Part shown: positions 7,763 to 30,493 of the stretch, in pieces
Layout: each line of letters opens with the position of its first letter
Numbering within the stretch: the first letter of the stretch is position 1
From: Neisseria arctica
Lineage (GTDB): Bacteria > Pseudomonadota > Gammaproteobacteria > Burkholderiales > Neisseriaceae
Assembly (NCBI RefSeq): GCF_022870905.1
Contig: NZ_CP091510.1
Coordinates: 558,001-622,000 of the forward strand
DNA: 64,000 bases
Direction: 5' to 3'
Program-made: the position numbers and the translations under genes
Notes under the pieces: generated by a model
Database searches by the model: none
What the model was told of the DNA's origin: nothing
What the model saw: only the letters and a program-made list of their open reading frames with translations

Positions 7763-7850
7763 ACTTTGGGCCAGATAGGTTTGAAAAAAGTTTATTTTTA
7801 ATTGACTAAAAAATGATGGGAGTATCAGGCTTTAAATTGATAAATAAAAC

Positions 7851-13776: not shown

Positions 13777-13949
13777 AAATGTTTGGAAAAGGAAAAAATT
13801 GAAAGGTTGTATTGTACCTGAAAACCTTTTTGGACAGTTTGGGGAAAATAATAGTTATTTTATTGCTTTTGCTATTTTGTTTGGTTGTTATCATGCAGTT
13901 ATATTGTTGTGCGGCTTTTTCGGCGGCTACGGCTGTGCTGCCGCCCGAT

Positions 13950-14159
13950 GCGGGGCTGCTGCCGTTAATGTAGGCCAAGGTCGCGCCCAATGCGGGGCTG
14001 CTGCCGTTAATGTAGGCCAAGGTCGCGCCCAATGCGGGGCTGCTGCCGTTAATGTAGGCCAAGGTCGCGCCCAATGCGGGGCTGCTGCCGTTAATGTAGG
14101 CCAAGGTCGCGCCCAATGCGGGGCTGCTGCCGTTAATGTAGGCCAAGGTCGCGCCCAAT
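13950..14159. repeat. five tandem 42-bp repeats
   Basis: Five head-to-tail copies of a 42-bp unit (13950-13991, 13992-14033, 14034-14075, 14076-14117, 14118-14159) look identical by eye. Each encodes ALGATLAYINGSSP on the minus strand. The other cassettes of this type carry a single copy, so the array is a local expansion. There are no spacers. Confidence 0.95.
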
Positions 14160-14660
14160 GCGAAGTGTCCCAGTATTTGGGCGGCTTCGTTTTTGTTTTC
14201 ACCGTGGCCGAACTGCTGTCCGATAGCGGCTGCCTGCAGGTCGCTTTGTCCGCCCAATGCGCCGGTAATGAGGGTGGTTGCGGCATTTAGGGCGCGGCTG
14301 TTGCTGCCGCCTACGCCCCAATCGCGGGCTTTTGCATAGGCCGTCTGAAAGCTTTCGCTATTGTTTAGCAGAAAGAGGGTTTTTCCTGTGTCGTCCAGAT
14401 TGGCGTAATGCATTTGTTGTTCGGGCGACAGGTTGTTGAGGGCTTCTGCGCGGGCGGTTTCTTGCTCTTTTAGGGCATCGGCAGCCATATTGCCGCTAAT
14501 GGTGCGTACGGCGGAGAAGATGTCGGTAGTGGCTTTGGCAACGGTTTGCTGTTTCTGCATCACCTCGCGGATATCGGGCAGGGCGTCGATTTGGCGGTGG
14601 GCGGCTGCCGCATCGCTGTTGATGCCCAATTCCTGTGTGGTGGTTGCTTTACCGCCGATA

Positions 14661-14672
14661 TTCAGACGGCCT
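14661..14672 (-). repeat. intragenic DUS at the C8 boundary
   Basis: AGGCCGTCTGAA on the minus strand, read in frame as G-R-L-N within SEGRLNIGG. The tpsA homology of C8 stops within about 20 bases upstream of it. Confidence 0.85.
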
Positions 14673-14727
14673 TCGCTTAGGGTGGCGTGGATCTAATAGT
14701 AAGAAAATGCTGTATGAAAAGTTACAG

Positions 14728-14757
14728 GCTGCTTTCAATCTGTAAAGGCAGCCCGAA
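14728..14757 (-). terminator. hairpin after the C7 immunity gene
   Basis: GGCTGC and GCAGCC with further A/T pairing around the Ser-codon-like loop form a hairpin in the position where other cassettes have a DUS pair. It has no intact DUS. Confidence 0.45.
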
Positions 14758-14843
14758 AATCAGCGGCAAAAGTAACGATTAGAAATTGTCAAAACTAACA
14801 ATGCAAAAAGTTGGGTCTTGACCCAACCTACGCTTACTACTTG

Positions 14844-15176
14844 CTAAAAAAAGAAAAAAATCCCTGTTTCCCTTTCTATTGCTATAGAAACTAAATCAAA
14901 TATCTGCTTATAGATTTCTTCAGGGCTTTCCTGTATCCAATCTCTCAAAAAGTTTCTAAGGATAATTAATTTTTTAATATCAGTAATTTCTTCATTTTCG
15001 AAATCATCTATATTAATATCAAGTATATAGTTGATTTTTTCAAAAAAATCAGATGAAAATAGTTTATTAATTTGTTCCTGGTTAAGTGTTATTTCAATTA
15101 ACTCATCTTGACTAGCTTCATTATACATTAACCTCTGTAAAGCTAATATATTAATAGGAACTGTGATGTACTTCAT
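14844..15176 (-). CDS. C7 immunity protein (putative)
   Basis: A 110-residue, acidic, helical cytoplasmic protein of no recognised family, starting nine bases after the stop of the C7 toxin frame. Size, position and AT-rich composition fit a CDI/TPS immunity protein that neutralises the C7 C-terminal domain by binding it. The sequence ends in a run of Phe codons (GIFFFF). The pairing is inferred from gene order only. Confidence 0.7.
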   Translation of the reverse strand: MKYITVPINILALQRLMYNEASQDELIEITLNQEQINKLFSSDFFEKINYILDINIDDFENEEITDIKKLIILRNFLRDWIQESPEEIYKQIFDLVSIAIERETGIFFFF

Positions 15177-15185
15177 GATTTTATC

Positions 15186-16442
15186 CTAGTTCTTAATCTT
15201 AAAATGGGTTACTTCATTATATTCAGCAGTAGTTCTTCCAGCCTGTTTTCCCGTTGATATAATTTTATTATTTGGTACAGTTCCATTTAAATCAAGATAA
15301 TTTCTTTTTCCAGATATTTTAGTATCTAAAATTCTAAAATATCCTCCCGCAATGTCCTGAACAATCTGTATCCCATTCTTTCCTTCATATATAGCTTTAC
15401 CTTTAGGGGTAAAATATATTTTAGGATTGCTACCAACAAATTTTCTAATAGTTTCGTCTAAATCAGCTTCCTTCCAGTTTTGGCTGTATACTTGGGCACG
15501 TTTAGCACCCAAAGTTACCTTTTGTGGCACGGCAGCCATTTCTCCATCTACAGGAGAAGGTTTAGCTATTTGATTACCTCTTTGTAAGGTCGTTAATGTT
15601 TTAGATGAAGTTGCTTTAATTGCTGCCCCCGAAATGGCGGCTCCCACTACCGGACTAAGCTTCACCCCCGTATCCAGTAGTTTTGCACCGTCCGTTAACT
15701 GGTCTTCGTGGTAAGTTAAGTCAGGAAGGTTGGAATCCAACGCCAAGCCCCATGCCGAAAGGTCGGTTCTGCCTGATTCGGTTAGTGAGAACAGTAATCC
15801 GTTATTTATGATGGTCGCTGCCGCCTGATTGGTATTTCTCAAGTCGGCAATTGCGTTCAGATGGCATTCATTCCCTTTGCTGCGACAAAGTTCTCTCAAT
15901 GCTTGGGATTGCTTTTCACCTTTTTTGCGGTATTTTTCAATTATCCTTTCTTTTTCTTCGTCTGTCTTGGCACGTTTAAGCTCGGCACGTAAATCGTTGA
16001 CATCTTTTAAACTTAGATAGTTATTCTCGACTGCATTCTGCCCAATCACCCCGCCAATCTGCGCACCCAAGGCAGAGCCGCCGTCTCCGGTTGCGCCAAC
16101 GATAGACGCAATTACACCGGTAGTCGATTTAATTTCATCTTTGATATGCTCGGGTAACAGGTTGGCGTTGAATTCTCCCGTTACCGGATCGCGGGCGGTT
16201 TGTCCGTCGTCATACTGTTGCGCCAAATATTGTGCGGCTTTTTCGGCGGCTACGGCTGCACTGCCGCCCGATGCGGGGCTGCTGCCGTTAATGTAGGCCA
16301 AGGTCGCGCCCAATGCGAAGTGTCCCAGTATTTGAGCAGCTTCGTTTTTGTTTTCACCGTGGCCGAACTGCTGTCCGATAGCGGCTGCTGCATAAGGGGC
16401 GAGAGTGTTGGCGGCTGCCTGCAGGTCGCTTTGTCCGCCCAA
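15186..16442 (-). CDS. C7: silent tpsA/cdiA cassette with C-terminal toxin domain
   Basis: A partial TpsA lacking secretion signal and TPS domain. The frame is open from the DUS at 16523-16534; the TTG at 16442 is only a formal start. Order: stalk (GGQSDLQAAANTLAPYAAAAIGQQFGHG), LAYINGSSPASGG, pretoxin domain, VENN, a charged linker (NDLRAELKRAKTDEEKERI), then a variable C-terminal domain. The last 100 residues (AQVYSQNWKEADLDETIRKFVG ... GGYFRILD ... SGKRNYLDLNG) resemble RNase-type toxin tails of other neisserial and enterobacterial polymorphic toxins. A BECR-fold RNase is possible but unproven. The immunity gene follows. It needs recombination into tpsA to be secreted. Confidence 0.8.
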   Translation of the reverse strand: MGGQSDLQAAANTLAPYAAAAIGQQFGHGENKNEAAQILGHFALGATLAYINGSSPASGGSAAVAAEKAAQYLAQQYDDGQTARDPVTGEFNANLLPEHIKDEIKSTTGVIASIVGATGDGGSALGAQIGGVIGQNAVENNYLSLKDVNDLRAELKRAKTDEEKERIIEKYRKKGEKQSQALRELCRSKGNECHLNAIADLRNTNQAAATIINNGLLFSLTESGRTDLSAWGLALDSNLPDLTYHEDQLTDGAKLLDTGVKLSPVVGAAISGAAIKATSSKTLTTLQRGNQIAKPSPVDGEMAAVPQKVTLGAKRAQVYSQNWKEADLDETIRKFVGSNPKIYFTPKGKAIYEGKNGIQIVQDIAGGYFRILDTKISGKRNYLDLNGTVPNNKIISTGKQAGRTTAEYNEVTHFKIKN

Positions 16443-16522
16443 TACGCCGGTAATGAGGGTGGTTGCGGCATTTAGGGCGCGGCTGTTGCTGCCGCCTACG
16501 CCCCAATCGCGGGCTTTTGCAT

Positions 16523-16534
16523 AGGCCGTCTGAA
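16523..16534 (+). repeat. intragenic DUS at the C7 boundary
   Basis: AGGCCGTCTGAA, lying in the F-Q-T-A codons of the stalk segment SFQTAYAKARDW (complete in C8). TpsA homology of C7 begins about six bases before it. The flanking bases (AGCTTTAGATTGC...) are the same as those beside C5. Confidence 0.85.
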
Positions 16535-16561
16535 AGCTTTAGATTGCTTTATATTACAAGT

Positions 16562-16599
16562 ATACCGTCTGAAAAAGATAAGATTTTTTCAGACGGTAT
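16562..16599 (-). terminator. variant-DUS hairpin after the C6 immunity gene
   Basis: ATACCGTCTGAA paired with TTCAGACGGTAT. This is a one-base variant of the AT-DUS present in both arms, so the pairing is kept. It separates the C6 immunity gene from C7. Confidence 0.75.
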
Positions 16600-16612
16600 C
16601 AAACTTATATAT

Positions 16613-17077
16613 TTAAAATTTCATATTATTTTTTCTTCTGTTTATATATGAATTTATAAGTTTAGTTATTATGTTTAATAGTATTAAAAATATAATGCTT
16701 GAGATAATTGAGGCTATAAGATAAATTTCTTTTGTTTTGAAAATAGGTATGTGTATGGGCCTGTATTGATTGTCTGAGAATCCAATAAATAATCCATATC
16801 CATAACAAAATAATAATAAAAAAGTTGAAACAAGATTAACTATTTTGTTTTTTATAAAATATCTTAATGTGGCAATAATAAGTAGTGCTAGGAAAAAATA
16901 AAGATATGCTATAAATGCAGCACCAAAAGATCCTGTAATATAGTCTATTATTGTTTCAAATATATTTCCTTCTTTATAATTAATGCTTAATAATAAGTAT
17001 GCAAAAAAAATATATGAAATAATAAAAAATGTTAATGAGGTACAAAAAAAGTGAAAAATAAAAGAAGGTTTTTTCAT
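16613..17077 (-). CDS. C6 immunity protein (putative), four-helix membrane protein
   Basis: A 154-residue, very hydrophobic protein with about four transmembrane helices (around residues 8-30, 52-72, 83-103 and 121-142) and a Lys/Arg/Asn-rich C-terminus. Its ATG overlaps the C6 toxin stop by four bases (ATGA), giving tight translational coupling. Integral-membrane immunity proteins are typical for toxins that act in or at the inner membrane, such as pore-formers. That role is an inference from topology and position. No family recognised. Confidence 0.7.
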   Translation of the reverse strand: MKKPSFIFHFFCTSLTFFIISYIFFAYLLLSINYKEGNIFETIIDYITGSFGAAFIAYLYFFLALLIIATLRYFIKNKIVNLVSTFLLLFCYGYGLFIGFSDNQYRPIHIPIFKTKEIYLIASIISSIIFLILLNIITKLINSYINRRKNNMKF

Positions 17078-18012
17078 GATTTACATCCTTGCTTTTCTGT
17101 ATAGCCTAGGAGATTACATCCATATTGTATTCTTGACTTGTAGTCTAAAATATTTACTCCGCTTACTATTTCAGATACTTTCCGAAATAGCTGTTTATTA
17201 GCAAGATATTTATCATGAATCGGTTGTAATACTCTTTGTTCATCTTTAAGTTGCTTAATATCCCATTGTATTGGGTTGGGTCTATTGTTATATAAATATT
17301 TAAAATTATTAAAACCTTGTGTTATTAATGTATCTCCAGCTTCTTTACGCCAACTATAGATATCAGGATTAGAAAGGATTTTACCAGCACCAAATGTTAT
17401 ATAGGAGCCGCAACCATCTGCTCCGAGGCCTGTTATACAATTACGAGAAACTTTTTCTGCACCTTCAAACCATTTTGCCCCCACTCCTAAGTTTTTCTCA
17501 TATTGGTTACTTGCTGCAAAAAAGTCTGCTCGGTTATCAATGGTATTCATATAATGAACCAATCTATCTTTTGCTTTTTCCGTATTGTAAATGTAATTAA
17601 ATGTTTTATTAGATGTTCTTGAAACATCTTGTCTCATGACGTTCCATGCTTCTTGCATAGAAATATACTTTATTTGATTTGAAATTCCTGTTCTACATGC
17701 ATCACTATACGGATTTGTAGAACATAATCTTTGTACTTCCTGATCTAGTAATTCACTAATTTTTTCAGCTTCTTGAGTTGATAATTCACCACGTTTCATT
17801 CTTTGGAAATGTATTGGGGTGAGATAATTATTTTCTACAGCATTTTTGCCAACGGCGGCATTGATTTGGGCGCTTAATGCCGAATCACCGCCAATGCTGC
17901 CTACAAATGCGCCTACCGCACTGCTGAGACTGCGGATGTTTTCTTTCTGATCTTCGGTGAGGTTGTTCGGATTATCCGCTGCTTCTTGACCGTATAGTCC
18001 TGCCGTAATCAC
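17074..18012 (-). CDS. C6: silent tpsA/cdiA cassette with unrecognised toxin domain
   Basis: The frame holds the end of the pretoxin domain (QEAADNPNNLTEDQKENIRSL, SAQINAAVGKNAVENN) and a C-terminal domain of about 245 residues after VENN. The latter is Cys-containing (RLCSTNPYSDACRTGI, RNCITGLGADGCGSY, GCNLLGYTEKQGC), with a hydrophobic glycine stretch in the middle. I recognise no catalytic motif. Upstream homology continues to the DUS at 18249-18260 but is broken. Around 18190 the segment ELGINS is joined to AANTL with loss of the intervening stalk and a frame change, so the formal GTG start at 18012 lies after the break. A membrane immunity gene overlaps the stop. Confidence 0.72.
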   Translation of the reverse strand: MITAGLYGQEAADNPNNLTEDQKENIRSLSSAVGAFVGSIGGDSALSAQINAAVGKNAVENNYLTPIHFQRMKRGELSTQEAEKISELLDQEVQRLCSTNPYSDACRTGISNQIKYISMQEAWNVMRQDVSRTSNKTFNYIYNTEKAKDRLVHYMNTIDNRADFFAASNQYEKNLGVGAKWFEGAEKVSRNCITGLGADGCGSYITFGAGKILSNPDIYSWRKEAGDTLITQGFNNFKYLYNNRPNPIQWDIKQLKDEQRVLQPIHDKYLANKQLFRKVSEIVSGVNILDYKSRIQYGCNLLGYTEKQGCKS

Positions 18013-18260
18013 TTTGGCTGCGGCCTCCGCACCGGTGCCGGCTATTGCGCCGGTACCGAAGCTGCCGCCGTTGGCATAGGCCAGTAAACCGCCGATGACG
18101 GCATGGCTGAGAAGCTGTGCCGCTTCATTCGGATGACTGCCGCTTTGCCCGAAAGTTTTACCGACCGTTTCGGCGGCATAGGGTGTTGGCGGCTGCTATA
18201 GCGCTGTTGATGCCTAATTCCTGTGTAGTGGTTGCTTTACCGCCAATATTCAGACGGCCT
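18013..18260 (-). pseudogene. C6 stalk remnant, deleted and frame-shifted
   Basis: Bases encoding EGRLNIGGKA-TTQELGINS are followed directly by AIAAANTL and then, out of frame, by the segment that reads ETVGKTFGQSGSHPNEAAQLLSH in C4. Compared with C4, most of the HRQIDALPDIREV-to-GGQSDLQ stretch is missing and eight bases are lost in the APYAAE segment. This separates the DUS boundary from the intact toxin frame. Confidence 0.7.
18249..18260 (-). repeat. intragenic DUS at the C6 boundary
   Basis: AGGCCGTCTGAA on the minus strand within the EGRLNIGG codons. Homology to other cassettes stops about ten bases upstream. The flank (AATAGTAAGAAAAT) resembles the flank of C8. Confidence 0.85.
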
Positions 18261-18297
18261 TCGCTTAGGAGCGTAGTTGCTTGAATAGTAAGAAAAT

Positions 18298-18333
18298 ACT
18301 GTCTGGAAAGCTGGAATTTTTTCAGACGGCAGT
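18298..18333 (-). terminator. degenerate DUS hairpin after the C5 immunity gene
   Basis: ACTGTCTGGAA is paired with TTCAGACGGCAGT. It lies just after the SUKH immunity gene on the minus strand. Confidence 0.6.
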
Positions 18334-18396
18334 GTCATTTACCAAAACAGAAAAATAATTAAATTGAGTTGGCAAAAGAGGTTATTCTACAGTTCG

Positions 18397-18879
18397 TTAA
18401 ATTTCATTAAAGAAATCAGGATTTTCAAACAATTTGTAAATAAAATTTTCTATTGAATCTGCTAATGGGTTCTCCATATCCCATATCCAATATACAGGTT
18501 GTTTAGGTTTGTCTACATCTCGTATATCAAAACAAACAAAATATTCGCTAAATCTTTCGAAAAATGGTACTTGATATGGCTCGAGAACGAAATCTGGAGA
18601 TATTTGTTCTGACTCTCCTTTTAGTATATCTGCAATTGATAGGGGATCCATTAGTCTATTTACTTCCTCTGTTACTTTACTTTTATCAGCACTAGTTTTA
18701 AAGAAACCATATCCTATTTCTTGCCAAAAATAGAGCAAATCAGATGGAATATGAATATATTTTTCCAGCTCTGCAAAGTCGTCATCTGGCAGCTTGAAAA
18801 ATAAATTTTTTTCTACAGGCGATGTATATTCACTTGGGTCATCCATAATAACGGAAGCATTCTTTATTGAATCAAACAT
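18397..18879 (-). CDS. C5 immunity protein, SMI1/KNR4 (SUKH) family
   Basis: A 160-residue acidic cytoplasmic protein with the SUKH layout: an early helix-strand DFAELEKYIHIPSDLLYFWQEIGYGFF, then the hydrophobic NRLMDPLSIADIL motif, and later strands EYFVCFDIRD and PVYWIWDM. SUKH proteins are common immunity partners of nuclease toxins, which fits the HNH-type C5 toxin just upstream (10-base gap). Cognate pairing is inferred from order and family habit. Confidence 0.82.
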   Translation of the reverse strand: MFDSIKNASVIMDDPSEYTSPVEKNLFFKLPDDDFAELEKYIHIPSDLLYFWQEIGYGFFKTSADKSKVTEEVNRLMDPLSIADILKGESEQISPDFVLEPYQVPFFERFSEYFVCFDIRDVDKPKQPVYWIWDMENPLADSIENFIYKLFENPDFFNEI

Positions 18880-18889
18880 ATTATTTATC

Positions 18890-20026
18890 CTAATCTTTTT
18901 GAAGACTTCTTAGTGGGCCACCTGAGCGGTGAATACCGCCTTGATGTTGGTCAGGGTATCTAGCAGGAGTAATATTTTGCCAAATGTTAGCGCCATTATT
19001 TTCTAGTGGTTGAATATGATGTACATCATATTTATCTCCTATATTCCTAATGCGTAGCCCTGTTTTAGATGAATTAACAGGCTTAGTATAGGTTGGCCAT
19101 TTTTGACCTGTATTCTGTTCCCATTCTCTGATGAGTTTAGCTTTATTTCTGCCAAACTCCGCTCGGCGTTTTGCCAACTCCTGCTGGCTTGGTCTGGCTG
19201 TACCATTGGCTCTTATATATTCAGTTAACCCTGCACGCTGGCTAAATTCAATACGATAGCCCGTTTGAGCCTGAATATCATTTAAGTATTCTCGAATATT
19301 CAATGCTCTTTGAGTTACCGCGGTAGGTGTTTGATAAGCCTGATAGTTATTATTAAATCTTGCTACATATTCAGCTTGGCTTCTTCCTCTCGGTTGCGTT
19401 CTTAAAAACTCTGCAAATGCCCTCATTTGAGCAATTTCTGCAGCAGTTATAACACCCCTTCCTTCTGCGTCTATATTTCTATATGTCGGAAACCCATTAA
19501 AGTTAGGTATAAAAGAGCGTACTTGTGCCAATTGAAGATTATTGGCCGCAATATTAGAATCATTTCTCACTAATTGTGGGGCTCTAAATCTTCTTCCGGC
19601 GGTATTATTCTCCACCGCATTCTGCCCAATCACCCCGCCGATCTGCGCACCTAAGGCAGAGCCGCCGTCTCCGGTCGCGCCCACCACGGCAGCAATCGCT
19701 CCCGTAGCGGCTTTGATTTCATCTTTGATATGCTCGGGTAACAGGTTGGCGTTAAATTCTCCCGTTACCGGATCGCGGGCGGTTTGTCCGTCGTCATACT
19801 GTTGCGCCAAATATTGTGCGGCTTTTTCGGCGGCTACGGCTGCACTGCCGCCCGATGCGGGGCTGCTGCCGTTAATGTAGGCCAAGGTCGCGCCCAATGC
19901 GAAGTGTCCCAGTATTTGAGCAGCTTCGTTTTTGTTTTCACCGTGGCCGAACTGCTGTCCGATAGCGGCTGCTGCATAAGGGGCGAGAGTGTTGGCGGCT
20001 GCCTGCAGGTCGCTTTGTCCGCCCAA
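18890..20026 (-). CDS. C5: silent tpsA/cdiA cassette with HNH-type nuclease toxin
   Basis: The frame is open from the DUS at 20107-20118; the formal start is an internal TTG. It carries the same stalk and pretoxin part as C7 (GGQSDLQAAANTLAPYAAAAIGQQ through GVIGQNAVENN). After VENN comes a toxin of about 235 residues. Its C-terminal 50 residues have a His-Me-finger/HNH pattern: YDVHHIQPLENNGANIWQNI, then P-A-x-x-P-D-Q-H, then IHRSGGPLRSL. The double His, the central Asn and the downstream His suggest a metal-dependent DNase. An Arg-rich region (RPSQQELAKRRAEFGRNKAK) precedes it. It is followed by a SUKH immunity gene. Confidence 0.85.
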   Translation of the reverse strand: MGGQSDLQAAANTLAPYAAAAIGQQFGHGENKNEAAQILGHFALGATLAYINGSSPASGGSAAVAAEKAAQYLAQQYDDGQTARDPVTGEFNANLLPEHIKDEIKAATGAIAAVVGATGDGGSALGAQIGGVIGQNAVENNTAGRRFRAPQLVRNDSNIAANNLQLAQVRSFIPNFNGFPTYRNIDAEGRGVITAAEIAQMRAFAEFLRTQPRGRSQAEYVARFNNNYQAYQTPTAVTQRALNIREYLNDIQAQTGYRIEFSQRAGLTEYIRANGTARPSQQELAKRRAEFGRNKAKLIREWEQNTGQKWPTYTKPVNSSKTGLRIRNIGDKYDVHHIQPLENNGANIWQNITPARYPDQHQGGIHRSGGPLRSLQKD

Positions 20027-20106
20027 TACGCCGGTAATGAGGGTGGTTGCGGCATTTAGGGCGCGGCTGTTGCTGCCGCCTATGCCCCAATCGCGGGCTT
20101 TTGCAT

Positions 20107-20118
20107 AGGCCGTCTGAA
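20107..20118 (+). repeat. intragenic DUS at the C5 boundary
   Basis: AGGCCGTCTGAA within the F-Q-T-A codons of the stalk. The cassette's homology to C8 starts about six bases before it. The next 20 bases of flank match the C7 flank. Confidence 0.85.
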
Positions 20119-20146
20119 AGCTTTAGATTGCTTTATATTAAAAAAT

Positions 20147-20183
20147 ATGCCGTCTGAAAAATATAATATTTTTCAGACGGCAT
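20147..20183 (-). terminator. DUS inverted-repeat terminator after the C4 immunity gene
   Basis: ATGCCGTCTGAA and TTCAGACGGCAT, with A/T pairs extending the stem. It is placed between the C4 immunity gene and C5. A stretch of about 190 AT-rich bases without a gene precedes it. Confidence 0.8.
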
Positions 20184-20375
20184 ATTAGCCATTTTATTTT
20201 AGGTAGTTTGATTTATTATACTACTTACCATCATTTTCTGCTCCTTTTAAGAAAGTAAGAAAGCATTAAAATATTTCAAAACTTAATGTTTTTCATTGTG
20301 TTTAATATTTAGAATGTAAATATTTAATAATATGGAGTGAAATTATCTTGCTTATAATTTAAAATTATTATATTT

Positions 20376-20798: not shown

Positions 20799-20845
20799 TA
20801 AAATAACTCCAATTGAAATATTTTATATATTTATGTATTTTCTGT

Positions 20846-22528
20846 TCAGTCTGTAATAAATTTTCCAATTTTTACCATATTTGCTTTCCCAATAGAGCCA
20901 GAAGGAGATTTAGTTGTTGTAATTCCAAATTCAAAAGATATTTTTCCACTAGGAGTTTTGCTACTACCTACACAGGCAAAATAACCACATCCTGATATTG
21001 TTGTAGATTGCCCTTGAAGGGTATTTGTAATTGTTTCCCATAAACGAGCTTTTTCAATAGATGATAAATTATTAATATTACCTGCTGTAGCTGTTACGCT
21101 GGGTATACCTAAAAAATTAATATTATTATTTTCTTTAATGTTTGGGGAGGCTGATGCTCCTAAAAATATTTCTCCAGTAACTCTATTTACAGCTAAGCTT
21201 AGTCCGTAGTTTAATTTATCAGTAATAGGTAAATTAATAGTAGTAGCCCAGTAATGAATGCTGGGATTATTAGCCCATGGGGTATTATAATAGTTTACAA
21301 AAGCAGGTATAGGCTTAGCTGGATTATTATTTCCATAAGAATTTAATTCTTTCTTTGTTATTTCTCGACTTAAATCTGCTTCCTTAACATATTTGCTACA
21401 TAAGGTAATATTACCATTTTCAGCACATGCAGCTTTTAATTTTTCATTACGATTTTTACTTATTGCATAAAGCTTTTGTTGAGCTGTGCGATAACATGCA
21501 GCTATATTTTGATTTTGTGAGCAAGATTTAATAGTATCTCGATATTTATCCCAATCTTGCTGAAGTAAGTAATTATTTTCTACCGCATTTTTGCCAACGG
21601 CGGCATTGATTTGGGCGCTTAATGCCGAATCACCGCCAATGCTGCCTACAAATGCGCCTACCGCACTGCTGAGGCTGCGGATGTTTTCTTTCTGATCTTC
21701 GGTGAGGTTGTTCGGATTATCGGCGGCTTCTTGACCGTATAGTCCTGCCGTAATCGCTTTGGCTGCGGCTTCCGCACCGGCGCCGGCTACTGCGCCGGTA
21801 CCGAAACTGCCGCCGTTGGCATAGGCCAGTAAACCGCCGATGACGGCATGGCTGAGAAGCTGTGCCGCTTCATTCGGATGACTGCCGCTTTGCCCGAAAG
21901 TTTTACCGACCGTTTCGGCTGCATAGGGGGCGAGGGTGTTGGCGGCTGCCTGTAAATCGCTCTGTCCGCCAAGCAGGCCGGTGGCTAGGGTGGAAACCAC
22001 ATTCAGTGCGCGGGATTTGCTGCCGCCCATCTCCCAGTCTTTGGCTGCCCGGCTGGCTAGATCCAATCGTACGGCCGCTGTATCTATGGCAGCCTGATCA
22101 TTGCTTTGCAATGCCGTCTGAAGCTGTTCTTGTGCCTGTTGCTGCTCTTTTAGGGCATCGGCAGCCATATTGCCGCTAAAGGTGCGTACGGCGGAGAAGA
22201 TGTCGGCAGTGGCTTTGGCAACGGTTTGCTGTTTCTGCATCACCTCGCGGATATCGGGTAGGGCGTCGATTTGGCGGTGGGCGGTTGCCGCATCGCTGTT
22301 GATGCCCAATTCCTGCGCGGTGGCTGCTTTACCGCCGATATTCAGACGGCCTTCGCTTAGGGTGGCGTAGGTGGTGCCGCTGTCGCCACCGCTTTCGTAT
22401 TGCGGCAGGGTAGGGGCGAAGCCGGCTCCTTGGTTCATACTTTGTCCGGCAATGGCGGATGATTTGCCCAATGCGCTTTGTTTGAAGGCTTCGCCGGAAT
22501 TGAGCTGTCCGCCGTAGCCGCCGCTCAA
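20846..22528 (-). CDS. C4: silent tpsA/cdiA cassette with unrecognised toxin domain
   Basis: A long partial TpsA; the TTG at 22528 is formal. It spans the segment GGYGGQLNSGEAFKQSALGKSSA, the EGRLNIGG segment with its DUS (22341-22352), a second DUS in LQTALQS, the helical linker, SHPNEAAQLLSH, pretoxin and VENN. The C-terminal domain after VENN is about 240 residues. It contains Cys pairs early (KSCSQNQNIAAC, AACAENGNITLC) and ends in a beta-rich half with SIHYWATTINLP, TGEIFLGASASP and GCGYFACVGSSK. I do not recognise the fold. Upstream the frame is broken by a seven-base loss near 22712, so the cassette is not continuous with its own 5' homology. Confidence 0.78.
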   Translation of the reverse strand: MSGGYGGQLNSGEAFKQSALGKSSAIAGQSMNQGAGFAPTLPQYESGGDSGTTYATLSEGRLNIGGKAATAQELGINSDAATAHRQIDALPDIREVMQKQQTVAKATADIFSAVRTFSGNMAADALKEQQQAQEQLQTALQSNDQAAIDTAAVRLDLASRAAKDWEMGGSKSRALNVVSTLATGLLGGQSDLQAAANTLAPYAAETVGKTFGQSGSHPNEAAQLLSHAVIGGLLAYANGGSFGTGAVAGAGAEAAAKAITAGLYGQEAADNPNNLTEDQKENIRSLSSAVGAFVGSIGGDSALSAQINAAVGKNAVENNYLLQQDWDKYRDTIKSCSQNQNIAACYRTAQQKLYAISKNRNEKLKAACAENGNITLCSKYVKEADLSREITKKELNSYGNNNPAKPIPAFVNYYNTPWANNPSIHYWATTINLPITDKLNYGLSLAVNRVTGEIFLGASASPNIKENNNINFLGIPSVTATAGNINNLSSIEKARLWETITNTLQGQSTTISGCGYFACVGSSKTPSGKISFEFGITTTKSPSGSIGKANMVKIGKFITD

Positions 22529-22728
22529 CCCGATATTTGACGCTTTGTAGCTGCTTTGGTTTTGAATATCTTCAAAGGTAAGGCTGTCGGCAGTCAGCTC
22601 GTTTTGCGCTGCGGGGGCGGTTGAGGTGATGGCGCCGCCTTTGAGGTGGACGCTGTCGGCTTTGACATGGTAGCCGCCTTCTCCGGCAAAGAGGCCGGAT
22701 TGTCGGTTGCGCTTTGTCCGCCGACTTC
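22529..22728 (-). pseudogene. C4 5' remnant with 7-bp deletion
   Basis: TpsA homology begins at GGQSAT (about 22728) and runs to the start of the intact frame. Where other copies read GQSATVNRQSG, one of two direct GGTTG copies and the bases AC are missing, which shifts the frame. This looks like slippage between the direct repeats. Confidence 0.65.
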
Positions 22729-22800
22729 AGAACTCGTAGGTATGGTTAACTGCCCTATGCGGCATAACCGTACGAATCCCTTTGAAATGAAAATATGCAC

Positions 22801-22842
22801 AGCCGTCTGAAACAGTTTTAAGAAAACGGATTTCAGACGGCT
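22801..22842 (-). terminator. DUS hairpin between C3 immunity and C4 (second of two)
   Basis: AGCCGTCTGAAA and TTTCAGACGGCT around an 18-base loop, followed by T5 on the plus strand. It is the second of two hairpins downstream of the C3 immunity gene. Confidence 0.7.
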
Positions 22843-22852
22843 TTTTAAATAA

Positions 22853-22889
22853 ATGCCGTCTGAAAAGTTAGAGTTTTTTCAGACAGCAT
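22853..22889 (-). terminator. DUS hairpin after the C3 immunity gene (first of two)
   Basis: ATGCCGTCTGAA with a diverged arm TTCAGACAGCAT. The two hairpins in tandem suggest two past insertion or recombination events at this spot. Confidence 0.7.
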
Positions 22890-22968
22890 AGAACTGTCAA
22901 TTATAGAAAGTATACTATAGGTACGTCCCATATCTGTGAATTTTATATATTATTTAGGTTGCAACTTA

Positions 22969-23235
22969 CTAATCATCCTTATTTACTATATCAAATAGAT
23001 TTTTAGTAAGATTTAGGCATTCATCTTTGCTTAATTTGAACTCTTCTCCCATATCCATTGCAATTAAATTCATAATTATATCTCGGCTTTCTTCGTTAAA
23101 ATTAGATGAATATTTATTTAGAATTTTCATAGATATATAAGAAATAATATTTGCATCAAAATTATTTTCAATGTTATCTTTTAAATATAAGAGTGCATCT
23201 AAAAAGCTTCGATCAAAATTAGTATTAATCTTCAT
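22969..23235 (-). CDS. C3 immunity protein (putative)
   Basis: An 88-residue acidic helical protein. Its ATG overlaps the stop of the C3 toxin frame by four bases. The general plan (FLDALLYLKDNI ... LTKNLFDIVNKDD) resembles the C2 immunity protein, which also has SLIDALLFFEF near its start, so the two may be distant members of one immunity family. Assignment is by position, size and composition. Confidence 0.7.
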   Translation of the reverse strand: MKINTNFDRSFLDALLYLKDNIENNFDANIISYISMKILNKYSSNFNEESRDIIMNLIAMDMGEEFKLSKDECLNLTKNLFDIVNKDD

Positions 23236-24665
23236 TTTTTAATTCCTTGATTAATTTCATGGCCTGTTGGTGGATAATGTTGCCCAGAAACAACTTGACC
23301 ATTTATAGATTTTGGATGTACTTGAATGACATTTCCATTTTTGTCATAATTTTCCATCCATTGTCGAACATGACCATTGTTAGGATTATATTCTGTTACA
23401 AAAGAAGCTCCTCTTGTATATCCTGCTTTTTTAGAAGGAACTTCTTTATCATAATACCTTATACGCCCATCAGGTAATTTTGTTATTCTAACAGCTGACT
23501 TTTGAGCCCCCTGAAGGCCAGATAATTTTGCCCGCAAAGCTGCTTGTGCATTCAAATTATTAGAAGTGGAGGGATTATTTCTGTTAGATACCTTTTCATT
23601 AATAGCAGGTGCCTCTTTAGATATGTCAGTATGTTTGACACCTTTCAGATTATTAACTTTACTGGCACCAGTAGTACCTACCATTCCTGCTTTACCTACA
23701 CTCAACGTATCCACCGCCAGTTGCACATAATTGGCAGCCTGTTCAGATAAGCCCAGCTTTTTCAAACCTTGAACAGTAACAGTAGGTCTTTGTTCGCTGG
23801 CTTTCTTTCCGAAATTGCTCAAACCGGTAATCAGATGGTCGCTTGATGAAGCGAGGCCAACTGCTGCTGCACCACAAGTCAGGCCAAATGTTTGGGCACA
23901 AGTGGCTGCGCCACCTTTTACCGAAATAACAATACCCGATGCACCGCCTACAATTTCAGCACCCGGAGTGATATAGCGATGGAGGATACTTTTATCTTCA
24001 CGGCTCAGCTTTTCGTATTGTGCTGTTAAATAATCAGCAAGTATTTTCGGATTATCGGATAAGAATTGCATTGACTCGATTTGTAAGTCTTTATAACTTC
24101 CCGAAAATCTTGTGTCTTGAGCAAACGCAATAATACGTTTGACATCTTGACGGCATTCTTGAATTCTACCGCCCTGGCACTCTTTGTGTACTTTATCCTT
24201 TAATACTTTATATATATTTCGAACTTCTCTTGATGTTTTAGCTAAAGCATTCTCAGTCAGATAGAAATTATTCTCGACTGCATTCTGCCCAATCACCCCA
24301 CCGATCTGCGCGCCTAAGGCAGAGCCGCCGTCTCCGGTTGCGCCAACGATAGACGCAATTACACCGGTAGTCGATTTAATTTCTTCTTTGATATGCTCGG
24401 GTAACAGGTTAGCGTTAAATTCTCCTGTTATCGGGTCGCGGGCGGTTTGTCCGTCGTCATACTGTTGTGCCAAATATTGTGCGGCTTTTTCGGCGGCTAC
24501 GGCTGCGCTGCCGCCCGATGCGGGGCTGCTGCCGTTAATGTAGGCCAAGGTCGCGCCCAATGCGAAGTATCCCAGTATTTGGGCGGCTTCGTTTTTGTTT
24601 TCACCGTGGCCGAACTGCTGCCCGATAGCGGCTGCGGCATAAGGGGCGAGGGTGTTGGCGGCTTT
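23232..24665 (-). CDS. C3: silent tpsA/cdiA cassette with putative nuclease-type toxin
   Basis: Homologous coding starts at AANTLAPYAAAAIGQQ just after a fusion point at about 24665; the frame upstream of that is a shadow. It contains the LAYINGSSPASGG stalk, pretoxin, VENN, and a toxin region of about 330 residues. That region begins with a helical, Cys-containing part (VHKECQGGRIQECRQDV) and a hydrophobic GGASGIVISVKGG segment. It ends in a compact domain (RITKLPDGRIRYYDKEVPSKK, TRGASFVTEYNPNNGHVRQW, SGQHYPPTGHE). The last domain has the look of small CDI RNase/nuclease tails, but I cannot name it. The immunity gene overlaps the stop. Confidence 0.78.
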   Translation of the reverse strand, partial: KAANTLAPYAAAAIGQQFGHGENKNEAAQILGYFALGATLAYINGSSPASGGSAAVAAEKAAQYLAQQYDDGQTARDPITGEFNANLLPEHIKEEIKSTTGVIASIVGATGDGGSALGAQIGGVIGQNAVENNFYLTENALAKTSREVRNIYKVLKDKVHKECQGGRIQECRQDVKRIIAFAQDTRFSGSYKDLQIESMQFLSDNPKILADYLTAQYEKLSREDKSILHRYITPGAEIVGGASGIVISVKGGAATCAQTFGLTCGAAAVGLASSSDHLITGLSNFGKKASEQRPTVTVQGLKKLGLSEQAANYVQLAVDTLSVGKAGMVGTTGASKVNNLKGVKHTDISKEAPAINEKVSNRNNPSTSNNLNAQAALRAKLSGLQGAQKSAVRITKLPDGRIRYYDKEVPSKKAGYTRGASFVTEYNPNNGHVRQWMENYDKNGNVIQVHPKSINGQVVSGQHYPPTGHEINQGIKK

Positions 24666-25349
24666 GGCCGGATTCAAGGCGTATGTTTTGGGCGGCATCA
24701 AGGGCGATGGTGTCGCCCGCGCCGGCGTTGGTGTGGTGCAGCCGGATGTCGCCTTCGGTAGCTTGTAGATTGAGGTTGCCGCCGGCGGTGAGGCTGTTGG
24801 CCTGGCTTTGGGCATAGCTTTGGTTTTGGCTGGAATTGGCGGTTTTGAAGCCGACACCGGCTTCCACCTTGGCAATCACGCCCTTGCCGGAAACGGCATT
24901 ATAGGCCTGATAACCCTGCGCGGCGGCGGCCATGCCTTGCAGGGCGCGGGTGCGGCCATCGGCTTTGCTTTCGGCTGCACCTTCTACGGCGTTGAGCAAA
25001 TCAATCAGCGGTGAGGAGACTTTGGCAAAGCTGCCGATTTTGACATCGCGCTCGGATTGCTGATTGCTGCCGTAGTTGCTGTCGGCCAAGACATCGATGC
25101 TTTGGGCGCGGATGTTGATATCCTTGGTGGCGGAAACATCGGCCACTTGCTGGGTGTAGCGTTCTGAGGCACGGATGTTGACGTTGCCGTCGAGGCTGCC
25201 GATTTAGGCTTTGACTTGCTCTACCTGATTGCTGCGGCTGTTTTGGGTGTTTTTCATCCAACCGCTGAAGTATTCAGTGTCGGAGATTTGGACGGAGCCG
25301 ATGCCGCTGCTGGTTTTTTGTTCGCTTTGGCTTTTGAAATTGTTAGAGA
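24661..25349 (-). pseudogene. C3 stalk remnant with nonsense codon and out-of-frame fusion
   Basis: Homologous to TpsA from the segment SSGIGS-QISDTEYFSGWMKNT to LESGQS, but clearly diverged in the middle (DVLADSNYGSNQQSERDVKIGS, EGAAESKADGRTRALQGM). A TAA stands at about 25204-25206 where TpsA has a Gln codon. At 24661-24665 the LESGQS segment is joined directly, in the wrong frame, to the AANTLAPYA segment that belongs several hundred codons further on. So C3 cannot encode one continuous protein. Confidence 0.8.
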
Positions 25350-25353
25350 ACAA

Positions 25354-25386
25354 AGGCCGTCTGAAAATTGATATTTCAGATGGCCT
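25354..25386 (-). terminator. DUS hairpin after the C2 immunity gene
   Basis: AGGCCGTCTGAA with a diverged partner TTCAGATGGCCT. It sits between the C2 immunity gene and the C3 remnant. Confidence 0.75.
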
Positions 25387-25401
25387 TTATTTAGCTGTTA
25401 G

Positions 25402-25647
25402 TTATTCAATGCCCATAAATTCTGGCAGATTACGAATAAAATTAATTTCTTCCTGCGTGTAACTATTTAACTCTAAAGATTCAAGTGTTTCTAAAAAAAT
25501 TTTTATATCAATTTGATTCATTTCTTGGAAATTTATAGCTATACTTTCCATAATTTCAATAGCTGAATCTGGATTTAATATCTCTTCATTTGAAAACTCG
25601 AAAAATAAAAGGGCATCTATTAATGATTTCATTAAAATTTGGTTCAT
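25402..25647 (-). CDS. C2 immunity protein (putative)
   Basis: An 81-residue, strongly acidic helical cytoplasmic protein (SLIDALLFFEFSNEEIL ... YTQEEINFIRNLPEFMGIE) starting eight bases after the C2 toxin stop. Its acidity would suit binding to the basic nuclease-like C2 toxin. No named family is recognised. It shares its opening pattern with the C3 immunity protein. Confidence 0.7.
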   Translation of the reverse strand: MNQILMKSLIDALLFFEFSNEEILNPDSAIEIMESIAINFQEMNQIDIKIFLETLESLELNSYTQEEINFIRNLPEFMGIE

Positions 25648-25655
25648 ATTAATTC

Positions 25656-27539: not shown

Positions 27540-28239
27540 ACCGATATTTGACGCTTTGTAGCTGCTTTGGTTTTGAATATCTTCAAAGGTAAGGCTGTCG
27601 GCAGTCAGCTCGTTTTGCGCTGCGGGGGCGGTTGAGGCGATGGCGCCGCCTTTGAGGTGGACGCTGTCGGCTTTGACATGGTAACCGCCTTCTCCGGCAA
27701 AGAGGCCGGATTGTCGGTTGACGGTTGCGCTTTGTCCGCTGCCTTTGCTTTGGTTGAAGTTACCCGAGGCTTCCCAAGCTGTGCCGAGGGATACCTGTAC
27801 CCGTACGCCGGCACCGCTTTGTTTGCTTTCCTGAGAAAGTGTGTCTTGCAGGCTTTCGATATGGAGCTTGCCGCCGATATCGGTGTCGATACGGCGGGCG
27901 GTGGCGGCGGCACCGCGCAGGGTTGTACCGCCTTTGCCGGTGATGCGGATGTGGTCGGCATTGAGTGTGGTGTTTTCGCGGGTTTGGGCATCGCTGCGGT
28001 ATTTGCCTTTGCCGGCACCGGCTTCGGCATAAACGTATACGCCGGTTTGTGCCCCTACGGATGCGCCTACGCCGACAGATGCGCCGACATTACTGTTCTT
28101 ACCGTCTGCATGCTGCCGGCTTTGTCCGGCTTCTTTTTAATCTTTAATTTTTATTTAAATATAGATTTATTTGAATCATAATTTATTATTTATGTTTTTA
28201 ATCAATATATCTAGAACTTTAATGAGCAGTTGATACATG

Positions 28240-28731
28240 CTATGGGTTACTTAAACACTTTGGATTGTTCTTATGTTCACCTTGTCTCCATGAAATAGAG
28301 AAAGAAATTTTACCACATATATAATATTTCTTATCAGCTTCTACACCATAGTCCATATTTTTCTCAGCGCGTATGTCGGTGATTGAAACATCTTTTTTGC
28401 AATAGTAAGAAGTGTTTCCAATTTGGTTGAATCCTTGGTTATATAAGGCTTCTTTAAATGCATAATATTCAATACACTTGGGTAAGGTAATATATGCGCC
28501 CACATAAACCCATGCATTTTTTTCAACATATTTACCATCTCCATAATCCCATAATTTTGCATTTAGTGATTGAGCTAATTCGGAAATAGTATTTTTTGTA
28601 TGGTTTAGCTCGTATAAACCATTGTTACTTAAAAATCTTTCTGGTTTTTTGGATGAATTTTTAAGCATAAAGAAGAAAAAAAGCACAAATAAAAGGCTTG
28701 TTATCTTCATGATTATTTCAAATTTTTTCAC
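28240..28731 (-). CDS. orphan membrane-anchored immunity-like protein
   Basis: A 163-residue protein with an N-terminal transmembrane helix (MKITSLLFVLFFFFMLK) and a periplasmic-looking domain containing several Cys (PKCIEYY, SYYCKKD, YYICGK, PKCLSNP), ending in SISWRQGEHKNNPKC. The plan matches the C4 immunity protein (TM anchor, late W-R, terminal Cys). No toxin frame precedes it, so it is an orphan immunity gene kept after toxin loss, or a hypothetical protein. The region is very AT-rich. Confidence 0.55.
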   Translation of the reverse strand: MKKFEIIMKITSLLFVLFFFFMLKNSSKKPERFLSNNGLYELNHTKNTISELAQSLNAKLWDYGDGKYVEKNAWVYVGAYITLPKCIEYYAFKEALYNQGFNQIGNTSYYCKKDVSITDIRAEKNMDYGVEADKKYYICGKISFSISWRQGEHKNNPKCLSNP

Positions 28732-29164
28732 AAAAAATCCTAATTAAAAAATGCAAAGAAATAAAAAGTTAAAATATTATTTCCCATGAAGATCATTAAA
28801 TAAGCCATTCAATTTTAAGGTGGGGTTTACCACCAATAATGTGTATCTTTTAATATTGGATTAAATAGCGTATAAATATCTCTGAGTTTGAAAAAAAGGG
28901 TTAAATCTTGGGTTTGATAATTTAGTAATCTTAATTTCCTACTTTGCTACTAATAAAAATACCTACTAGAGTACGGAGAATATTCTCTGCAGGATTTTTT
29001 CTTTGGATTTTTCAAGAATTAGCTGTTGTGTTGATAATCAATTAATAAAACCAAAATTATATTTAGAAACAATACCGTCCGTGGCATATTTGAAGCAATA
29101 GTAGGATAATTTATTGATATCCCATTTTTTTGAATGGTTGAGCTATCAGTCTTGGTATAAAAAT
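28732..29164. other. AT-rich gap with possible toxin or immunity debris
   Basis: No full gene is visible. On the minus strand around 29030-29130 a short frame reads KKWDINKLSYYCFKYATDG and on to GFIN, then a stop; it looks like the tail of a lost coding sequence. No DUS hairpin occurs here, unlike the other cassette junctions. Confidence 0.3.
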
Positions 29165-29449
29165 TTATGTTGACCAAAAAATATTAATCACTAATAAAAT
29201 TAGTATAATTACACCAAATATTAAATTAATCCTTAATAAAAGCAAATTAAATTTGTTTGATATCTCTTTTTTTCCGAACAATATTTTGAAATATTTAAAA
29301 TTTAAGTGGCTAAATTTAATTAAAAAATCAAAAAATCCAGAAATTTCTCCTTCTTCTTTAAATATTTTGTATGAAATTATGAAGTTCAGTATAGCTACTA
29401 TTATATAAATTAGTATCAGAATTCCAAAAAAATAAGGTGATGACATCAT
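29165..29449 (-). CDS. C1 immunity protein (putative), two-helix membrane protein
   Basis: A 94-residue protein with two long hydrophobic helices (about residues 6-28 and 68-91) linked by a Lys/Phe-rich cytoplasmic loop. Its ATG overlaps the C1 toxin stop by four bases. A small integral-membrane immunity protein suggests that the C1 toxin acts on the inner membrane. No family recognised. Confidence 0.68.
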   Translation of the reverse strand: MMSSPYFFGILILIYIIVAILNFIISYKIFKEEGEISGFFDFLIKFSHLNFKYFKILFGKKEISNKFNLLLLRINLIFGVIILILLVINIFWST

Positions 29450-30378
29450 TTAGTGTTTCCTTTTGATTTAGGTACATTAACTGTCCATTGATAACCGATA
29501 TTTGCATTGGCGATTGCTGAAGCTCCTCCTCCTACTTTTCCTGTTAACACTAATGGTTCATTTCTTGAAAGATGTGCACCTGCACAACCACCTAATACAA
29601 TACCTCCACCAGCAGTACTACATACTTCAGTAAAAGCACCATCTCCTCTAGAAACATTCGAAGCGGATAAACCAGCAAAAGCTTCGAAGCCAGTACCGGC
29701 TGTAAGAGCAGCTGTTATTACAATGCTTTTATCTTGGTTAATAGTGACACTTAAATTGGCACCTAATCCCAGTGCAGCCGTTACCTCCGCAGTAAGGGCA
29801 GCATTTGCCTTGTAGGTTTTTAATAGATCAAATAATTTTTTTCTCTCTGCAGCAGTACTATTTGCATTGACGATAAATTGTTGGGTTCGTTGATGTGCCA
29901 TTTGTTGTAGATTGCTTTGTGCATTTGGAGAAATCCCAAAATCACTCAACGAGAAATTATTCTCCACCGCATTCTGTCCAATCACCCCTCCAATCTGCGC
30001 ACCCAAGGCAGAACCGCCGTCTCCGGTCGCGCCCACCACGGCAGCAATCGCTCCCGTAGCGGCTTTGATTTCATCTTTGATATGTTCGGGTAACAGGTTG
30101 GCGTTAAATTCTCCTGTTATCGGGTCGCGGGCGGTTTGTCCGTCGTCATACTGTTGCGCCAAATATTGTGCGGCTTTTTCGGCGGCTACGGCTGCACTGC
30201 CGCCCGATGCGGGGCTGCTGCCGTTAATGTAGGCTAAGGTTGCGCCCAATGCGAAGTGCCCCAGTATTTGGGCGGCTTCGTTTTTGTTTTCACCGTGGCC
30301 GAACTGCTGTCCGATAGCGGCTGCGGCATAAGGGGCGAGGGTGTTGGCAGCTGCCTGCAGGTCGCTTTGTCCGCCCAA
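29446..30378 (-). CDS. C1: silent tpsA/cdiA cassette with Gly/Ala-rich toxin domain
   Basis: The frame is open from the DUS at 30459-30470; the TTG at 30378 is formal. The stalk and pretoxin part matches C5 and C7 nearly perfectly up to VENN. The following 170 residues begin with a helical segment (SPNAQSNLQQMAHQRTQQF) and continue into an Ala/Gly-rich part with alternating hydrophobic strands (LGLGANLSVTINQDKSIVI, GGGIVLGGCAGAHLS, GGGASAIANANIGYQW). No catalytic motif is seen. Composition and the membrane immunity protein suggest a pore-former rather than an enzyme, as a guess. This is the cassette closest to the expressed tpsA end. Confidence 0.78.
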   Translation of the reverse strand: MGGQSDLQAAANTLAPYAAAAIGQQFGHGENKNEAAQILGHFALGATLAYINGSSPASGGSAAVAAEKAAQYLAQQYDDGQTARDPITGEFNANLLPEHIKDEIKAATGAIAAVVGATGDGGSALGAQIGGVIGQNAVENNFSLSDFGISPNAQSNLQQMAHQRTQQFIVNANSTAAERKKLFDLLKTYKANAALTAEVTAALGLGANLSVTINQDKSIVITAALTAGTGFEAFAGLSASNVSRGDGAFTEVCSTAGGGIVLGGCAGAHLSRNEPLVLTGKVGGGASAIANANIGYQWTVNVPKSKGNTK

Positions 30379-30458
30379 TACGCCGGTAATGAGGGTGGTT
30401 GCGGCATTTAGGGCGCGGCTGTTGCTGCCGCCTACGCCCCAATCGCGGGCTTTTGCAT

Positions 30459-30470
30459 AGGCCGTCTGAA
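30459..30470 (+). repeat. intragenic DUS at the C1 boundary
   Basis: AGGCCGTCTGAA in the F-Q-T-A codons. Homology of C1 to the other cassettes ends within two or three bases of it, and the sequence then becomes the 3' end region of the lipoprotein gene. Confidence 0.85.
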
Positions 30471-30493
30471 AGATGGTATTTTATGCAGATTTA

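What the first reader, a model, noticed from the sequence alone, without database searches (positions are those of the whole stretch)
13885..30473. Toxin-immunity cassettes that begin at DNA uptake sequences embedded in the tpsA reading frame
Seen: eight partial tpsA copies follow the full gene. Five begin (on the minus strand) at or within about 20 bases of a DUS that is part of the coding sequence: C1, C5 and C7 at the DUS in the F-Q-T-A codons (30459, 20107, 16523), C6 and C8 at the DUS in the G-R-L-N codons (18249, 14661). C2 and C4 each carry a further in-frame DUS in LQTA. Most immunity genes are followed by a DUS hairpin. Inference: the uptake signal doubles as coding sequence, and each toxin plus immunity unit is framed by DUS. 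Such fragments would be preferentially taken up by transformation and recombined into tpsA through the shared stalk, replacing both toxin and immunity.
Basis: partly seen in the sequence, partly recalled or inferred. Interest (0 to 1): 0.8.

Follow-up and report, generated by a model that had tools for sequence, protein, structure and literature searches.

The report
Uptake signals inside toxin-cassette genes
A Neisseria stores spare bacterial-warfare toxin ends behind its main toxin gene, and several spare pieces contain DNA-uptake signals inside their protein-coding part; the signals look selected as DNA words, but they do not generally mark where the pieces begin.

Summary
The array is real: tpsB, an HlyC-like gene, a 3,300-aa tpsA, then eight 5'-truncated copies with toxin ends and immunity ORFs, a tpsC island as in N. 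meningitidis. C1, C5, C7 (FQTA) and C6, C8 (GRLN) start 2-21 b before an in-frame DUS, but C5=C7 and C6=C8 share junctions: three events, not five. Across species 6 of 58 independent 5' edges lie at a coding DUS (1.7 expected); without the window's island 4 of 52; in a later set 0 of 16. DUS before edges are no commoner than after ordinary genes. C1 and C5-C7 share no detectable DNA with this tpsA, C8 only 19-24 b, so the shared-stalk route fails for five of eight. Arenas 2013 already noted DUS at tpsC 5' ends. What stands: coding DUS are kept as DNA words. GRL before N/K is GGC-CGT-CTG in 63 of 71 contexts, before other residues 0 of 18; and in a genome with dialect GCCGTCTGCA, five of eight alignable stalk sites carry that dialect with the residue changed (F>L, N>Q, K>H, S>A twice). 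Verdict: known system, reading partly supported, one worthwhile addition.

The parts
41294..43075 (-). tpsB, outer-membrane transporter
   Evidence: Pfam ShlB E 4e-103 with POTRA_2 and POTRA_3
40758..41279 (-). HlyC-like acyltransferase gene between tpsB and tpsA
   Evidence: Pfam HlyC E 1.6e-37
30798..40700 (-). full-length tpsA, 3,300 aa; own toxin end joined after NELTA; 2 DUS in 9.9 kb
   Evidence: ESPR, TPS and Fil_haemagg_2 domains; translation; DUS count
30494..30781 (-). immunity ORF I0 of tpsA by position (looks like a lipoprotein)
   Evidence: position; no Pfam match at E 0.01
29446..30472 (-). cassette C1, begins 2 b before the FQTA DUS; PT-VENN
   Evidence: edge; Pfam
30461..30470 (+). 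coding DUS in FQTAY codons of C1
25656..28133 (-). cassette C2; 534 b at 97.6% to tpsA; DUS at 27352 and 27124
23232..25365 (-). cassette C3; stalk and VENN parts in different frames; upstream edge uncertain by some 50 b
20846..22727 (-). cassette C4; 140 b at 90.7% to tpsA; DUS at 22341 and 22113
18890..20124 (-). cassette C5 (weak HNH match, E 0.007, below cut-off), begins 6 b before the FQTA DUS at 20109
18397..18879 (-). immunity ORF I5, SMI1/KNR4 (SUKH-1)
   Evidence: Pfam E 5.3e-6
17074..18279 (-). cassette C6, begins 21 b before the EGRLN DUS at 18249; DUS part and VENN part in different frames
15186..16540 (-). cassette C7, begins 6 b before the FQTA DUS at 16525; same junction as C5
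13871..14688 (-). cassette relic C8, begins 18 b before the EGRLN DUS (14661), FQTA DUS internal (14340), 42-b tandem repeat, no toxin end seen
20149..20181 (.). exact DUS inverted pair after immunity ORF I4
22802..22841 (.). exact DUS inverted pair after immunity ORF I3

Best explanation
This is an ordinary tpsC island of a two-partner-secretion (CDI-type) polymorphic toxin system. Its 5'-truncated cassettes arose by recombination at short shared stretches scattered over the tpsA stalk. The stalk carries in-frame DUS because Neisseria keeps DUS as DNA words through DUS-dependent transformation, here in a permissive repeat protein. A few cassette edges fall at those coding DUS, partly by chance and probably partly because a coding DUS and an intergenic terminator DUS are one of the short identities at which recombination can join. 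Shown here: anatomy, edges, codon choice, dialect-following residues. Inferred: the recombination step, the toxin and immunity functions, and the role of uptake.
For: Anatomy and domains. Edges scattered: 58 independent edges in the first set, 16 in the later set. The same toxin plus immunity pair carries different stalk edges in other species: C5/I5 at 77/72% in G038 (edge more than 1 kb from any DUS), C4/I4 at 76/62% in G011 and 71/51% in G001 on another stalk type, C1/I1 at 68/62% in G042. Two junctions look like a terminator DUS arm running straight into a coding DUS (G043a base 7813, G001 base 8049). Codon test: 63 of 71 GRL[NK] contexts use GGCCGTCTG against 0 of 18 GRL[other], Fisher 5e-13; 18 of 18 LS[EA]GRLNI sites carry the DUS. 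Dialect test: G001 has 2302 GCCGTCTGCA and 873 GCCGTCTGAA; apart from G030 and G032 the other 43 genomes have at most 103 GCCGTCTGCA. Of 8 alignable DUS sites of the G043d stalk, 5 read the CA dialect in G001, with F>L, N>Q, K>H, S>A, S>A; outside DUS codons F>L is seen in 1 of 18, N>Q or H in 7 of 100, K>Q or H in 9 of 79, S>A in 8 of 143. Arenas 2013 (passages; Discussion): recombination at 5-23 b identities at no specific site.
Against: The excess of edges exactly at a DUS in the first set (6 of 58, 1.7 expected, p 0.007) hints that DUS may be more than one short identity among many. Dialect misses: 3 of 8 G043d sites, 3 of 5 G042b, 4 of 7 G041, 5 of 7 G020 and 0 of 2 G011 sites aligned to G001 have no DUS there, mostly where the residues also differ. 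Only one CA-dialect island was compared, so the five sites are not independent lineages. Keeping the place of a coding DUS is seen in other genes too, in small numbers.
Confidence: 0.78

Rival explanations
1. DUS x DUS joining: the intergenic terminator DUS behind an immunity gene recombines with a coding DUS of the stalk, so the uptake word itself is the seed that creates cassette 5' ends.
For: Edges within -9 to +8 b of a coding DUS: 6 of 58 against 1.7 expected. Fusions at G043a 7813 (terminator hairpin arm reads straight into VSDGRI codons) and G001 8049 (an AA-type arm into QTASLGS codons in a CA-dialect genome); G038b 8793 starts exactly at the LQTA DUS.
Against: Without the window's island 4 of 52 (p 0.08); later set 0 of 16; together 4 of 68 (p 0.14). 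The G001 8049 case was recognised by eye after the caller had placed the edge 25 b further in. Most edges are at no DUS.
Confidence: 0.18
2. One reading: cassettes are framed by DUS so that each toxin-immunity unit is taken up as a parcel and recombined into tpsA through the stalk.
For: Five of eight starts lie near coding DUS; Arenas 2013 reports DUS mostly at tpsC 5' ends and recombination of supplied tpsC into tpsA.
Against: DUS before edges are rarer than in non-coding stretches after ordinary genes; no clearly raised density; C1, C5-C7 share no detectable DNA with the resident tpsA and C8 only 19-24 b; same toxin-immunity units have other edges elsewhere.
Confidence: 0.12
3. Pure chance: the DUS near the window's five starts reflect ordinary DUS abundance plus two duplications of junctions.
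For: Five starts are three events; edges without the window's island show no significant excess at 300-b jitter.
Against: First set p 0.007, all 74 edges p 0.02.
Confidence: 0.4

Closest known systems
Meningococcal TPS islands with tpsC cassettes and IORFs (Arenas et al. 2013, PMC3848433; abstract, passages and whole Discussion read)
   Same: tpsB-tpsA followed by 5'-truncated tpsA copies with different 3' ends and immunity ORFs; VENN; DUS noted mostly at 5' ends of tpsC; recombination at short identities
   Different: Here the expressed tpsA lacks the VENN region that C1-C7 carry, so five of eight cassettes have no usable homology to it
MafB cassettes (Jamet et al. 2015, PMC4287609; passages read)
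   Same: full-length toxin followed by alternative C-terminal cassettes and immunity genes, exchange inferred
   Different: another toxin family; the main text has no 'DUS', and the one passage with 'DNA uptake sequence' is about primers
DUS dialects (Frye et al. 2013, PMC3630211; passages read)
   Same: dominant DUS variant per species; the paper notes that dialect choice alters residues encoded by intragenic DUS
   Different: no word beginning CTGCA in its main text; the GCCGTCTGCA genomes G001, G030, G032 and residue-by-residue following in a toxin stalk are added here. PMC11316581 (passages read) mentions seven possible new dialects, sequences not seen, which may include it

Membership tests
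tpsC cassette island (TPS/CDI polymorphic toxin) | TpsB-type transporter beside a TPS-domain exoprotein | tested here: met
tpsC cassette island (TPS/CDI polymorphic toxin) | downstream 5'-truncated tpsA copies with different 3' ends | tested here: met
   C1-C7 distinct ends, C8 a relic
tpsC cassette island (TPS/CDI polymorphic toxin) | pre-toxin VENN domain | tested here: met
   PT-VENN above Pfam cut-off in 6 of 7 cassettes scanned (C5 below, 17.9 of 20.3 bits; C8 not scanned); not listed for tpsA itself
tpsC cassette island (TPS/CDI polymorphic toxin) | immunity gene after each toxin end | tested here: inconclusive
   by position for 8 units; 1 of 9 small ORFs scanned has a known immunity family (SUKH-1, I5); I1, I3, I4, I5 recur beside a related toxin end in other species
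tpsC cassette island (TPS/CDI polymorphic toxin) | growth inhibition and protection | not testable with these tools
   needs experiment
cassette defined by DUS borders | 5' edges fall at coding DUS more often than jittered edges | tested here: inconclusive
   6 of 74, p 0.02; 4 of 68 without the window's island, p 0.14; 0 of 16 in the later set
cassette defined by DUS borders | DUS flank units more often than ordinary genes | tested here: not met
   25 of 74 against 99 of 208 and 120 of 214
cassette defined by DUS borders | shared stalk with the resident tpsA | tested here: not met
   only C2, C3, C4 have stretches over 100 b; C1, C5, C6, C7 no hit; C8 19-24 b
functional DUS in coding sequence | codon choice preserves the motif | tested here: met
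   63 of 71 against 0 of 18
functional DUS in coding sequence | motif follows the species dialect at homologous codons | tested here: met
   5 of 8 G043d stalk sites in G001; fewer against more distant stalks
functional DUS in coding sequence | raises DNA uptake of the fragment | not testable with these tools
   needs uptake assay

The most novel reading that the evidence does not exclude
In the tps stalk the uptake word has two jobs: it is kept so strictly that it dictates residues of a secreted toxin carrier when the species dialect changes, and, being present both in terminators and in the stalk, it is a preferred seed at which new toxin cassettes are cut and joined, so competence signals shape both the sequence and the modular architecture of a weapon.
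Probability: 0.15. Interest if true: 0.68.

Novelty: new member of a known kind. Interest (0 to 1): 0.38.

Why it matters
It bounds a tempting idea: DUS near cassette starts look like a transfer design in one locus, but across 74 edges they are at most a weak bias. At the same time the dialect test is a natural experiment in which an uptake signal overrides amino-acid identity at homologous sites of a toxin-carrying protein, which makes selection or drive on coding DUS directly measurable.

Tried and rejected
DUS enrichment in the island: not clear (1 per 976 b against 1 per 1181 b). Raised DUS in stalk codons: mixed. Window tpsA 2 in 9.9 kb and the held part of the second island's tpsA 4 in 4.4 kb, against 1 per 2017 b in long ORFs of a 400-kb sample of this genome; TPS genes of G042 (1 per 618 b) and G043 (1 per 591 b) are denser than their long ORFs (1 per 1411, 1 per 2048), G041 about equal (780 against 902), G038 less dense (601 against 430), G020 723 against 1100; the long-ORF samples are small, 3 to 27 kb.

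MucDUS species as dialect test: the four GTCGTCTGAA genomes (G006, G018, G023, G026) have no match with either stalk query, so only G001 served. Generality outside TPS: 27 alignable comparisons of G001 coding CA-DUS in 48 ORFs, 3 with the AA-DUS at the same place (all in one gene); from the other side 25 comparisons, 3 CA, 8 AA, 14 none; one site may be counted against several targets.

Rows dropped: first set 72 clusters, 69 with a called edge, 3 without; I dropped 7 judged toxin-only, full-gene or continuation calls and one duplicate row (61 left), then 3 shared junctions (58). Later set 39 clusters, 38 edges; 16 unique stalk edges used; the rest were contig starts, toxin-only matches, gene 5' ends, unclear homology or junctions shared with a kept one. 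Selection was by hand. The edge of G043a 7813 was shifted 12 b by hand in its reference before testing; G001 8074 was left as called. The class '-9 to +8 b' was set after seeing the first set and before fetching the later set. In one search two GRL sites outside the ORF set use GGCCGTCTG before another residue (G000a 18787, G038a 3345).

Paper search for the letters GCCGTCTGCA: 37 papers, ten listed, none of the ten on Neisseria by title; the other 27 not seen.
Full report
The window is bases 558001-622000 of a 2,378,219-b chromosome. Its genus is taken to be Neisseria from the DUS and because genomes of its genus include, by matching coordinates, the N. bergeri and N. elongata records (inference; species not named). 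It has 2013 GCCGTCTGAA, 12 GTCGTCTGAA and 31 GCCGTCTGCA. On the minus strand it holds tpsB (41294-43075, ShlB), an HlyC-like gene, tpsA (30798-40700, 3,300 aa; ESPR, TPS, Fil_haemagg_2) and eight truncated copies down to about 13871, next to an exonuclease-family gene.

Observation. Mapped against reference stalks, the 5' edges of C1, C5, C7, C6 and C8 lie 2, 6, 6, 21 and 18 b before a coding DUS; C2, C3 and C4 do not start at one. C5 and C7 share the spacer before the edge, and so do C6 and C8, so there are three independent junctions. C2, C4 and C8 show that such DUS sites also occur inside longer stalks. Density is near the genome's: 17 in 16,589 b against one per 1181 b. In a 400-kb sample of this genome DUS fall once per 3589 b in ORFs and once per 332 b outside; the ten stalk DUS of the cassettes are copies of three kinds of site (EGRLN, LQTA, FQTA).

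Homology to tpsA. The resident tpsA has no VENN part: its toxin joins after NELTA. C2 (534 b, 97.6%), C3 (435 and 212 b, 74-77%) and C4 (140 b, 90.7%) share stalk with it; C1, C5, C6 and C7 give no hit at E 0.1, C8 only 19-24-b matches. Exchange into this tpsA through shared stalk is therefore open to three of eight cassettes.

Other species. A search of 46 genus genomes with the C4 stalk found matches in 15, with a G043 stalk in 17. From 20 fetched stretches plus the window and an N. bergeri record, arranged as 18 islands, 72 clusters gave 69 edges; 61 were kept and, after joining shared junctions, 58. A coding DUS starts within -9 to +8 b of 6 edges; jittering each edge by up to 300 b in its reference expects 1.7 (p 0.007); without the window's island 4 of 52 (p 0.08). 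A later set of 20 stretches gave 16 usable independent edges, none at a DUS (0.4 expected). Together 6 of 74 (p 0.02), without the window's island 4 of 68 (p 0.14). The 100 b before an edge hold a DUS in 25 of 74 cases, less often than the 110 b after ordinary stop codons where non-coding (99 of 208 in this genome, 120 of 214 in five others). So DUS do not define or frame the cassettes in general.

Same weapon, other edge. The toxin and immunity pair of C5 recurs in G038 (77 and 72% identity) on a cassette whose edge is more than 1 kb from any DUS; C4's pair in G011 and G001 on another stalk type; C1's pair in G042 at another edge. A search of 46 genomes for I5 found it in this genome and G038 only. 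Units are shared between species, edges vary.

DUS-seeded junctions. Some junctions do sit in the word itself. At G043a 7813 a terminator hairpin's second DUS arm reads directly into the coding DUS of the VSDGRI codons; at G001 8049 an AA-type arm reads into QTASLGS codons, while the genome's full gene has the CA-type word there; G038b 8793 begins exactly at the LQTA DUS. This keeps DUS x DUS joining alive as an occasional route; G001 8049 was recognised by eye and is not in the counts.

DUS as a DNA word in the protein. In island ORFs of 200 aa or more that hold VENN, GRLN, FQTA or DWG, GRL followed by N or K, which can complete a DUS, is written GGC-CGT-CTG in 63 of 71 distinct contexts; GRL followed by residues that cannot, in 0 of 18 (Fisher 5e-13); the LS[EA]GRLNI site carries the DUS in 18 of 18 (two exceptions outside that ORF set). 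Genome G001 has 2302 GCCGTCTGCA and 873 GCCGTCTGAA; G030 and G032 share this dialect (1410, 1960), no other of the 46 exceeds 103. The G001 tpsA part held has eight CA words and no AA word. Eight DUS sites of the G043d stalk can be aligned to it: five read the CA word at the same codons, FQTA>LQTA, GRLN>GRLQ, GRLK>GRLH, NSDG>NADG, VSDG>LADG, and three have no DUS; against other stalks the count is G011 2 of 2, G042b 2 of 5, G041 3 of 7, G020 2 of 7. Outside DUS codons N goes to Q or H in 7 of 100, K to Q or H in 9 of 79, S to A in 8 of 143, F to L in 1 of 18. Where the site is kept, the residue follows the uptake dialect. In a sample of other G001 genes the place of a coding DUS was kept in 3 of 27 comparisons, or 11 of 25 from the other side, so keeping the place is a property of DUS, seen well in the stalk, not a special device of the toxin locus.

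Literature. Arenas 2013 (PMC3848433; [quoted passage not shown] Frye 2013 (passages) says intragenic DUS dialects alter encoded residues. [quoted passage not shown] By title and abstract start, the papers listed in my searches (lists capped) include none on dialect-following residues in a toxin stalk; that is all I can say on novelty.

Conclusion.

Noticed in passing
genomes G001, G030, G032: Dominant uptake word GCCGTCTGCA (2302, 1410, 1960 copies) where the 43 other genus genomes have at most 103; possibly an undescribed dialect.
   Followed up: partly
window 13942-14162: 42-b unit repeated 5.3 times at 99% identity in frame (LGATLAYINGSSPA) inside the C8 relic.
   Followed up: no
window 30798-31997: TpsA toxin end has a GHSRG motif like an alpha/beta hydrolase (motif recalled, no Pfam match at E 0.01) and its immunity ORF looks like a lipoprotein, suggesting a periplasmic lipase-type toxin.
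   Followed up: no
window 23232-25365 and 17074-18279: C3 and C6 have stalk and VENN parts in different frames, apparently from internal deletions.
   Followed up: partly
window 28240-28731: A second small ORF without Pfam match after C1's immunity ORF, some 430 b further on; possibly an orphan immunity gene.
   Followed up: no
G000:C1:1161183-1167542: A second tps island in the same genome whose tpsA keeps the VENN part; residues 788-1331 of the 1,466 held, reaching past VENN into the toxin end, are 95% identical to a G042 cassette, a sign of cross-species exchange.
   Followed up: partly
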